This document shows, piece by piece, positions 25,901-28,900 of a DNA stretch of 64,000 bases. Position 1 is the stretch's first letter; every line of letters begins with the position of its first letter. The translations under genes were made by a program, and so were the position numbers. Source of the stretch: Lineus longissimus (Eukaryota > Nemertea > Pilidiophora > Heteronemertea > Lineidae). Where the stretch lies: assembly GCF_910592395.1 (NCBI RefSeq), contig NC_088314.1, forward strand, positions 16,591,998-16,655,997, given 5' to 3'. The notes beneath the pieces were generated by a model, which saw only the letters and a list, made by a program, of their open reading frames with translations, was not told the origin of the DNA and did not search any database.

Positions 25901-28900
25901 GTATGATCATTTATAAATCTATTTTCTGTGGGCTGTTTGTATCATTCTGGACCTCGGTTTATCGACCAAAGGGTGTTTTTGAAAATAAACCTTCTGTGAT
26001 AATTGGAGACGTGGATCAGAAAAAATAAAGCCGCCCCCTTGATCTAAGCTAGCTGCAGCCATTTCCTGGGTGAGCCTCGTAGCTTACAGCTGAGGAAAAC
26101 AATGCTAGTGCTAGTGAATCATAGCTGGCACTGGCCCTAGCGATGTTTGTGAAACAGCTAAACACAGTGGCGAGTAAGTATAATTTTAACGAATAGGTTA
26201 AGAGAAATTATTAGTTGGAGAAAAAAGTATTACCTATTCCTAAAAAAAGCTGAATGATACTTTAATACAAGCCACTGACTATTTAACTGTAGCTAGATAT
26301 GACTTGGCAATTTTGATGGCTGATGTGGCATCTCGCCCACATCACACTCATCATAACCATTGGCTCCTCTTCACAGCAGCTGCTTGGTTAGTTGATCCTG
26401 ATGTGCTGCATGCTTCAATAGGTTCCTCAATCCAAACCCATCTGCTTCACCAGATCTTAAGGTTTTCGGTATGATCATTTATAAATCTATTTTCTGTGGG
26501 CTGTTTGTATCATTCTGGACCTCGGTTTATCGACCAAAGGGTGTTTTTGAAAATAAACCTTCTGTGATAATTGGAGACGTGGATCAGAAAAAATAAAGCC
26601 GCCCCCTTGATCTAAGCTAGCTGCAGCCATTTCCTGGGTGAGCCTCGTAGCTTACAGCTGAGGAAAACAATGCTAGTGCTAGTGAATCATAGCTGGCACT
26701 GGCCCTAGCGATGTTTGTGAAACAGCTAAACACAGTGGCGAGTAAGTATAATTTTAACGAATAGGTTAAGAGAAATTATTAGTTGGAGAAAAAAGTATTA
26801 CCTATTCCTAAAAAAAGCTGAATGATACTTTAATACAAGCCACTGACTATTTAACTGTAGCTAGATATGACTTGGCAATTTTGATGGCTGATGTGGCATC
26901 TCGCCCACATCACACTCATCATAACCATTGGCTCCTCTTCACAGCAGCTGCTTGGTTAGTTGATCCTGATGTGCTGCATGCTTCAATAGGTTCCTCAATC
27001 CAAACCCATCTGCTTCACCAGATGTCTTGAGTGATATGCTGACATCTCTATATATGCACCTCACATCAGTCCGCACACAAGAGATGGCAGTTCAATCACT
27101 GACTTCCGGATGTCAATCTGTCAGCAATACTGATCACAAAGTTTTAAAAACATTTTTGAAGAAATAGTCGAAAGATATTCGGTCTGAAGTCTGCAACACT
27201 TGCTTACTTACACTTTTTGCAATGTTGTGACCTTCGTCATCATCATTATGATCATCCAATCACTGTGCTCTCATTGAATTTGTGCACTAAAACTACCCCC
27301 CCTCCCCACGCACATACACAGTGACAGCATTACATTTGCATTTCACACAAACAGACCCCAACACACTGGCTAAGAGCCTCAGTCACCCCTGCTCAATAAG
27401 AGGCTTGCCCAAATCACATGCCTGTATTTTAGCCCTTAACATACCCCTCCCGCAACGCTTTTCGCAATCAATGAAAGCACCAGCCCTGTACTTAAGGGCC
27501 CGCAAAATGCCTGGAGGACTTGGAGGGGAAATACTTCCAGGAGAAGACTGTAAACTTGGTAATGTTCGCACCATTTTATTTTCACAATTTAGGAGGCAAA
27601 CACGAACATTAAATTGGCTTAAATTTCAACTGTAATGCATTAACCATCAAATTTCAGCAGCTAACACAAGTTCTAGTTGACGCATAATGAAAAATGTGCA
27701 AATTTGCTAACTTTTGGCTCTGCGAACACTACCGGTTTACAGTAACATCTCCAAGTGCAGAGCAAGCACTGAAGAAGAAGAAGAAGAGGCGGGCAAGAAT
27801 CATGGACATCATCCTTTTCATTTCCAGGTGCCATGGTGCTATGTAGGCATGTGCTTTTCCACCTTTTGTTGGCATAACGAAGACCATTGGAGCTATGCCA
27901 TAAACTACTTGCACTGGTTAGTATCCAACGTGCTTTAACATGTCAGCCACCGTAATCGTTTTGTTGACCAGTGCTCCTGATTTCAGATCCCATGGTGCTA
28001 TGTCGGCATGTGTTTCTCCAGTTTCTGTTGGCACAATGAGGATCACTGGAGCTACTCTATTAACTATTTGCACTGGTAAGTATGCTGTAAGCCACTGTCC
28101 AGTCGAGTCTTAGAATCCGTGGCCCAGTTGCTTTAAAAAGGTTGACCATAGGTGCCTCTAGTTTGTCTAGAGCTTGAAATCTTAAAGTGGGACTATAGGC
28201 AGGAGGAGAGGGGCTAATTTGGCCATCTTCAAGTGACTGGTATACACAGTAAGGGCCCTTGGTCATGTCAGACTTAGCAATAATATATCCCTCGTACAAG
28301 CGTGAATCATTTCGACCTACTGTGAGATGTGAGGGACCCCTATTGGCAGCTATGTGTAACTTTATCTTGCCTGCCTAGCTGCTGCCTATATTGTCCCTTT
28401 AAACAATTAAAACTTCCTCAAAACGAAGTGAATGCCAATTTCAAGGGTGGGAGTGAGGCAACACCATTTTGGCTGAACTTGAAATCCTAAAGCTATTTAA
28501 AGAATTCCTTCAAAACAGAGGGGATCTCAATTTAAGGGTTGGAGTCGGTTCTTTTCGTTTCCGCAGAACAGACTCCCACCCTTGAAATTGGCTTTCACTT
28601 CGTTTTGAACAAGTTCTAATTGCATTAGGATTTCAAGTTCTAGCCAAAACGATGTCACCTATGGTCAACCCTTAATTCCAACTGAGGAACTGGGCCTAGT
28701 TTGTTGCAGCGAGTTTGTAGAATTGAGTCTCTCTCTTGGGTTGGTTTTGTTGTGTAACTTCTTAGGCAGTGTTGTAAGTAGCATTGCCTTTCAAGTCCAC
28801 ACCAACTCCCCACCCACAGTTCTGCCTCTTCCATCTGTACTAGATTAGTAGTTAGCATGTGTGGTGGTATCGGGACTGATGTCAACTGCAAGGTTTCCCA

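What the first reader, a model, noticed from the sequence alone, without database searches (positions are those of the whole stretch)
27828..28075. Duplicated, apparently mutually exclusive exon in the KDM5 JmjC active site
Two tandem 89-nt exons encode the same 30 residues that carry the Fe(II) ligands H457 and E459. Both have AG and GT splice sites in identical phase. They differ at 18 of 89 bases, but 12 single-base codon changes are silent and only 3 residues change (V/I, T/S, A/S). A dead copy would not show this pattern, so both look selected as coding exons. I know of no described splice switch inside the catalytic core of a KDM5 enzyme.
Basis: partly seen in the sequence, partly recalled or inferred. 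Interest (0 to 1): 0.9.

Follow-up and report, generated by a model that had tools for sequence, protein, structure and literature searches.

The report
Swappable active-site exon in histone demethylase
An animal gene for a histone-demethylating enzyme (KDM5) carries two interchangeable versions of the exon for its catalytic centre, differing at a residue that holds the enzyme's co-substrate, so splicing may be able to switch the chemistry of an epigenetic eraser; transcripts have not yet been examined.

Summary
Confirmed: a KDM5 gene has two tandem 89-nt exons, 27828-27916 (13a) and 27987-28075 (13b), 70 nt apart, with the same phases and AG/GT sites. They differ at 18 of 89 bases, 15 at third codon positions, and at three residues. 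Synonymous divergence is saturated (14.5 of 15.7 sites), nonsynonymous is 3.5 of 71.3; 0 of 5000 simulated pairs with one copy dead from birth looked like this. Both copies have long been selected as coding exons. Including both, or neither, gives an immediate stop, so only one at a time can yield the full enzyme. New here: the A/S difference is at the equivalent of human KDM5B Ser507, which hydrogen-bonds the 2-oxoglutarate C-1 carboxylate (PMC5636616). 13b has Ser; 13a has Ala but keeps the Fe ligands and Asn509. Reading: a mutually exclusive splice switch between two catalytic KDM5 variants, in a genome where no second KDM5 was seen. Expression, exclusivity and kinetics are untested, and no other animal genome could be searched. 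The paper searches made showed no earlier description. The species is probably the nemertean Lineus longissimus (inferred).

The parts
   Evidence: spliced model against a KDM5 guide
27828..27916 (+). exon 13a: [29 protein letters not shown] + 2 bases of W; acceptor TTTCCAG, donor GTTAGT
   Evidence: site scores within the range of 16 other sites of the gene
27861..27863 (+). ACC Thr in 13a (KDM5B Ser495 position, next to Phe496)
   Evidence: position by alignment to KDM5 chains, number counted back from H499
27873..27881 (+). His-Asn-Glu of 13a: Fe(II) ligands His and Glu (KDM5B H499, E501)
   Evidence: ligands named in PMC5636616
27897..27899 (+). GCC Ala in 13a at the KDM5B Ser507 position (2OG C-1 carboxylate contact)
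27917..27986 (+). 70-nt intervening intron; YTNAY branch-point candidates with A at intron positions 22, 51 and 64
27987..28075 (+). exon 13b: [29 protein letters not shown] + 2 bases of W; acceptor GATTTCAG, donor GTAAGT
   Evidence: donor within range, acceptor just below the lowest of 16 others
28020..28022 (+). AGT Ser in 13b (KDM5B Ser495 position)
   Evidence: alignment
28032..28040 (+). His-Asn-Glu of 13b: Fe(II) ligands
28056..28058 (+). TCT Ser in 13b at the KDM5B Ser507 position (canonical)
30845..30964 (+). shared exon carrying [21 protein letters not shown], with the third Fe-ligand His (KDM5B H587; placed by recall of the motif)
4794..38251 (+). KDM5 gene, modelled part: JmjN, ARID, PHD, JmjC, KDM5 C-terminal helical domain, C5HC2 zinc finger, PLU-1 in 19 exons plus 13a; further C-terminal tblastn hits reach 43471; linker exons between 8721 and 22566 may be missing
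   Evidence: Pfam, 7 families above their cut-offs

Best explanation
13a and 13b are an old tandem exon duplication used as a mutually exclusive pair. Each productive KDM5 mRNA carries one of them, giving two full-length H3K4 demethylases that share everything except three residues around the Fe(II)/2-oxoglutarate site. Exclusivity is enforced at least by frame: joining both, or skipping both, creates an immediate stop. The short intervening intron may add steric exclusion. The functional difference is most likely kinetic: 13b gives the canonical enzyme (Ser at the KDM5B Ser507 position), while 13a gives an Ala variant that lacks the hydrogen bond to the 2OG C-1 carboxylate but keeps His, Glu and Asn509, so it should still bind Fe and turn over, with altered 2OG/O2 handling or decarboxylation rate. 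Shown: duplication, intact sites and frame, selection on both, frame logic, position of the A/S change. Inferred: splicing of both, its regulation, and the kinetic effect. The confidence given is for mutually exclusive use of both exons; the kinetic part alone is about 0.35.
For: Identical length, phase and splice dinucleotides. 18 differences with saturated synonymous and very low nonsynonymous divergence; 0 of 5000 simulated pairs with one copy dead from birth, 0 of 5000 with both dead, 0 of 5000 with one copy half-relaxed, against 138 of 5000 with both 90% constrained and 1018 of 5000 with both 95% constrained. Double inclusion stops at ...INYLH*, skipping at ...GMKG*. The two donors score in the top 1.3% and 0.65% of 3535 GT sites of the window's plus strand, the two acceptors in the top 0.45% and 1.3% of 3809 AG sites. 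Only this one of 19 modelled exons has a second copy in the window. KDM5B Ser507 hydrogen-bonds the 2OG C-1 carboxylate and 'may be involved in 2OG decarboxylation' (PMC5636616, passages). Ser is at this position in the KDM5A, KDM5B and KDM5C chains printed, the KDM4A chains printed, plant JMJ14 and this genome's KDM4-like and KDM6-like exons (lined up by eye).
Against: No transcript was examined. No other animal genome was searched: the protein database was switched off, and the viral and prokaryote contig scans held no relative. The three changes are chemically mild, and the Ser495 position varies in other KDM5-type enzymes (Ala in KDM5C; Thr in JMJ14). 13b's acceptor scores slightly below the lowest of 16 acceptors of the gene (8.94 against 9.0). 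The region folds no better than shuffles (z +1.48), and no exact intronic 9-mer is complementary to both exons (0 in either flanking intron; shuffles give about 0.05, so a weak test), so no docking/selector mechanism is visible. The best-placed branch-point candidate is 51 nt from the donor, at rather than below the reported ~50-nt steric threshold.
Confidence: 0.82

Rival explanations
1. The exons are spliced mutually exclusively but the isoforms are equivalent in catalysis; the pair persists for dosage or regulatory reasons (for example stage-specific splicing with NMD of unproductive forms), and the A/S change is near-neutral. (Overlaps with the best explanation: it shares the splicing part and denies the kinetic part.)
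For: Only three mild changes; 26 of 29 residues identical after synonymous saturation, so the two products are kept very alike.
Against: Ser stands at this position in each of the KDM4-, KDM5- and KDM6-type sequences that I could read and contacts the co-substrate, so a neutral Ala would be unexpected.
Confidence: 0.3
2. 13a is a poison exon: its inclusion together with 13b gives an immediate stop and NMD, tuning KDM5 level, with no 13a protein made.
For: Double inclusion does give a stop straight after ...INYLH.
Against: A poison exon needs no amino-acid constraint, yet 13a keeps the protein sequence while synonymous sites are saturated.
Confidence: 0.06
3. 13a (or 13b) is a recently silenced relic: it was a functional alternative exon for most of its history and is no longer spliced.
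For: Sequence cannot date a very recent loss; 13b's acceptor and 13a's donor are at the weak end of this gene's sites.
Against: No stop, frameshift or broken splice dinucleotide in either copy.
Confidence: 0.07
4. Assembly artefact: two haplotypes or two loci stitched together.
For: The same intron 12 holds a perfect 568-bp tandem duplication upstream (25887-26454 and 26455-27022), which could be an assembly duplication or a recent event.
Against: Saturated synonymous divergence is far too much for alleles; similarity stops a few bases outside the exons; no second KDM5 JmjC was seen among the genome's 14 JmjC matches, counts that the tool calls lower bounds.
Confidence: 0.02

Closest known systems
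Human OGDH exons 4a/4b (mutually exclusive pair, PMC7969005, passages read)
   Same: Tandem exons selected one at a time in an enzyme of 2-oxoglutarate metabolism, with a size-restricted intervening intron; branch points 25-41 nt from the donor enforce exclusion there.
   Different: OGDH is a 2OG dehydrogenase subunit, its switch concerns Ca2+ sensitivity, and its branch points are mapped; here branch points are only guessed (22, 51, 64) and the changed residue would contact 2OG in a demethylase.
MXE events that hit catalytic residues (PMC7954323, passages read: 9 such events in that dataset, e.g. fly CG42249)
   Same: Splice choice changes active-site residues.
   Different: No KDM or demethylase is named in that main text (0 occurrences); its supplements were not read.
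Human KDM5B isoforms: variant exon 6 and KDM5B-NTT (PMC10281864, passages read)
   Same: Alternative KDM5 isoforms from one gene.
   Different: Those add 36 residues or truncate the N terminus, NTT being catalytically inactive; here the active-site exon itself is swapped and both products look catalytic.
LSD1/KDM1A neuronal microexon (PMC11605454, start of the abstract as shown in the listing)
   Same: Alternative exon that changes the activity of an H3K4 demethylase.
   Different: Inserted microexon in a flavin enzyme (recalled), not a duplicated exon replacing the JmjC metal/co-substrate site.
JARID2-type JmjC (this genome, C11; JARID2 chains printed)
   Same: A KDM5-like JmjC that lacks the Ser507 equivalent.
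   Different: JARID2 also lacks the Fe-ligand His/Glu and the Asn; 13a keeps them all.

Membership tests
KDM5 (JARID1) H3K4 demethylase | JmjN, ARID, PHD, JmjC, C5HC2 zinc finger and PLU-1 in that order | tested here: met
   Pfam: JmjN, ARID, PHD, JmjC, KDM5_C-hel, zf-C5HC2 and PLU-1 all above cut-off on the 969-aa 13a isoform model
KDM5 (JARID1) H3K4 demethylase | Fe ligands His/Glu and co-substrate residues in the JmjC | tested here: met
   Both isoforms keep HxE and the Asn509 equivalent; the Ser507 equivalent is present only in 13b
KDM5 (JARID1) H3K4 demethylase | H3K4 demethylase activity | not testable with these tools
   needs an enzyme assay
Mutually exclusive exons (criteria of Pillmann 2011, PMC3228551) | same or similar length | tested here: met
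   89 and 89 nt
Mutually exclusive exons (criteria of Pillmann 2011, PMC3228551) | conserved splice-site pattern and reading frame | tested here: met
   GT-AG on both, phase 0 in, two bases of a codon out
Mutually exclusive exons (criteria of Pillmann 2011, PMC3228551) | sequence homology | tested here: met
   26 of 29 residues identical; tblastn E 2.65e-21
Mutually exclusive exons (RNA criteria of PMC5740500) | junction reads for each exon and none joining both except with a frame shift | not testable with these tools
   no RNA data; joining both would give a stop
Steric-hindrance MXE | donor to branch point under about 50 nt | tested here: inconclusive
   motif candidates at 22, 51 and 64 nt in a 70-nt intron; none mapped; threshold from PMC7969005 and PMC5740500 passages
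Competing-RNA-structure MXE (Dscam type) | docking site complementary to selectors of each exon | tested here: inconclusive
   no exact shared complementary 9-mer in either flanking intron, an exon-directed test of low power; fold z +1.48; one intron-12 stretch, 27411-27423, pairs imperfectly with both exons

The most novel reading that the evidence does not exclude
The only KDM5 gene seen in this genome uses splicing to choose between two active sites of one histone demethylase, one of them lacking the serine that holds the 2-oxoglutarate C-1 carboxylate, so that H3K4 demethylation can be given different sensitivity to 2OG, TCA metabolites or oxygen by cell type or stage: a single-gene counterpart of having several KDM5 paralogues.
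Probability: 0.35. Interest if true: 0.85.

Novelty: new variant of a known kind. Interest (0 to 1): 0.7.

Why it matters
Whether JmjC demethylases are tuned to metabolite or oxygen level through their active site is usually asked by comparing paralogues that differ at many positions (my own view of the field). Here nature offers two forms differing at three residues, one of them a co-substrate contact, kept by selection long enough for silent sites to saturate. That makes the role of this serine directly testable, and would show that an animal can switch the catalytic core of an epigenetic eraser by splicing. It also predicts that the exon pair is old, so it should be findable in related animals.

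Tried and rejected
Dead-copy reading: rejected by simulation. Poison-exon reading as the sole role: rejected by the codon pattern. Dscam-like docking/selector pairing: not seen, with weak tests; the intron-12 stretch 27411-27423, imperfectly complementary to the GGCATGTG part of both exons (pairs I8 and I12 of 14), is by my rough estimate, made without a call, about what chance gives in 1.7 kb. RNA families: 0 matches in 25000-31000. Mutational literature on the serine: no paper with KDM5A and S491; none with at least three of KDM5A, KDM5C, Ser491, Ser-491 (so a paper with only two of these was not asked for); 1 with KDM5B and Ser507, read in passages; 2 with KDM4A and Ser196, not read; 1 with JmjC and an Ala mutant among those asked, a review on fatty liver, not read. 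A 2023 review of JmjC catalysis has no 'Ser' as a whole word in its main text (PMC10769511, passages). Prior description: searches (121 papers, 25 listed; 186, 20 listed; 58, 20 listed; 507, 20 listed) showed none in the rows listed; the passages seen of PMC6168629, PMC7954323, PMC5740500 and PMC3228551 name no KDM5 exon pair. The library lacks most subscription papers, supplements were not open to me, and 'no description' means only these searches. Viral and prokaryote contig scans: 8 and 40 stretches matched a pattern, none a relative. Two early translations were off by one base and are to be ignored, P0001 included.

Full report
WHERE. The window is G000:C7:16591998-16655997 in a genome of 391,118,348 bases in 30 contigs. 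The one published assembly that I compared, the nemertean Lineus longissimus, is 391 Mb in 32 scaffolds, 19 of them chromosomal (PMC8593623, passages). I infer that species; the size matches, the contig count is close, and it is not proved.

THE GENE. tblastn with a recalled human KDM5B guide and a small spliced aligner give a plus-strand KDM5 gene with 19 modelled exons from 4794 to 38251; C-terminal hits go on to 43471. Linker exons between 8721 and 22566 may be missing from the model. Pfam finds JmjN, ARID, PHD, JmjC, KDM5_C-hel, zf-C5HC2 and PLU-1 above cut-off. Of the 14 JmjC-family matches in the genome, four are this gene. By my reading two are KDM4-like, two KDM6-like and two JARID2-like, and four belong to other JmjC hydroxylases (labels recalled). 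No second KDM5 JmjC was seen, but the tool calls its counts lower bounds.

THE EXON PAIR. Exons 27828-27916 and 27987-28075 are each 89 nt, with AG before and GT after, and a 70-nt intron between them. The 18 introns of the model without 13a are 211 to 13,844 nt. Peptides: [29 protein letters not shown] and [29 protein letters not shown], each completed to W by the next exon. 18 of 89 bases differ; 12 codons change silently by one base and three change an amino acid. Of 19 exon peptides tested against the window, only this one has a second copy.

SELECTION. NG86 counts are 14.5 synonymous differences on 15.67 sites and 3.5 nonsynonymous on 71.33: silent sites are saturated, so the duplication is old. 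In simulations conditioned on 18 differences (kappa 2, 5000 kept per model), at most 3 residue changes and no stop appeared in 0 with one copy dead from birth, 0 with both dead, 0 with one copy half-relaxed, 138 with both 90% constrained and 1018 with both 95% constrained. Both exons have therefore been strongly constrained as protein-coding for most of their history. A very recent loss of use cannot be excluded.

FRAME LOGIC. 89 is not a multiple of three. Joining 13a to 13b stops at once (...INYLH*), and joining exon 12 to exon 14 stops at once (...GMKG*). Only a transcript with exactly one of the pair encodes the full enzyme. Splice-site scores by a matrix from 16 donors and 16 acceptors of the gene: 13a donor 7.66 and acceptor 12.48, 13b donor 8.73 and acceptor 8.94, against training ranges 7.0-13.4 and 9.0-16.9; 13a has the better acceptor and 13b the better donor. 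Branch-point-like motifs in the 70-nt intron have their A at 22, 51 and 64 nt. Reported steric thresholds are about 50 nt (PMC7969005 and PMC5740500 passages), so steric exclusion is possible but not shown. No unusual RNA fold and no exact shared docking 9-mer (a weak test).

WHAT THE CHOICE CHANGES. Aligned to the KDM5 chains, the three differences fall at KDM5B 484 (L in KDM5B; V in KDM5A and KDM5C), 495 (S in KDM5A and KDM5B, A in KDM5C; T in plant JMJ14) and 507; the numbers are counted from H499. In KDM5B the metal is held by His587, His499 and Glu501; the 2OG C-1 carboxylate is stabilised by a hydrogen bond to Ser507, 'which may be involved in 2OG decarboxylation'; Lys517 and Asn509 contact the C-5 carboxylate; Phe496 and Trp514 clamp the methylenes (PMC5636616, passages). 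13b has Ser at 507; 13a has Ala. Ser is present in the KDM5A, KDM5B and KDM5C chains printed, the KDM4A chains printed, JMJ14, and this genome's KDM4-like and KDM6-like exons (lined up by eye). That is the handful of sequences I could read, not a survey. JARID2-type sequences lack it together with the Fe ligands, whereas 13a keeps His, Glu and Asn. So 13a predicts a still-catalytic enzyme with a changed co-substrate contact. That kinetic effect is inference; the searches made showed no mutational test of this serine (with the limits told under Tried and rejected).

COMPARISON. It meets the published sequence criteria for mutually exclusive exons (length, splice sites and frame, homology: PMC3228551 passages); the RNA criteria (PMC5740500 passages) could not be tested. 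Active-site MXEs exist (9 events, PMC7954323 passages), and KDM5B has other isoforms (PMC10281864 passages), but I saw no JmjC demethylase with swappable active-site exons in the rows listed by searches. I therefore call it a new variant of a known kind.

LIMITS. No transcript, no other animal genome, no enzyme data. The protein database was switched off, and own-genome searches with the exon sequence did not complete (and their repeats). Confidence that both are used as alternative coding exons: 0.82. Confidence that the swap tunes catalysis: about 0.35.

Noticed in passing
25887-26454 and 26455-27022: Perfect tandem duplication of 568 bp in intron 12, no mismatch, about 800 bp upstream of exon 13a; either very recent or an assembly duplication.
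   Followed up: partly
25619-25798: Five perfect copies of a 36-bp unit in intron 12.
   Followed up: no
9684-13335: An uninterrupted 492-aa FLYWCH + MULE transposase reading frame (10816-12291) inside a KDM5 intron, flanked by tandem-repeat arrays at 9684-9899 and 13108-13335 whose units look, by eye, like reverse complements of each other: perhaps one Mutator-like element with repeat-built ends.
   Followed up: partly
28137-28673: Nested inverted repeats (51-nt arms 92% and 49-nt arms 80% complementary) just downstream of exon 13b, MITE-like; a long hairpin could form in that intron.
   Followed up: no
28925-28978 and 29081-29134: 54-nt direct repeat, 96% identical, in the intron after exon 13b.
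   Followed up: no
49322-58288: About 9 kb of a 61-bp satellite-like tandem repeat downstream of the gene.
   Followed up: no
L009 (G000:C11:1733200-1734100): A JARID2-like JmjC in the same genome with the Fe ligands and the Ser/Asn co-substrate residues replaced (CWSRDLHLMPYIAYMH), as in the JARID2 chains of the structure library.
   Followed up: partly
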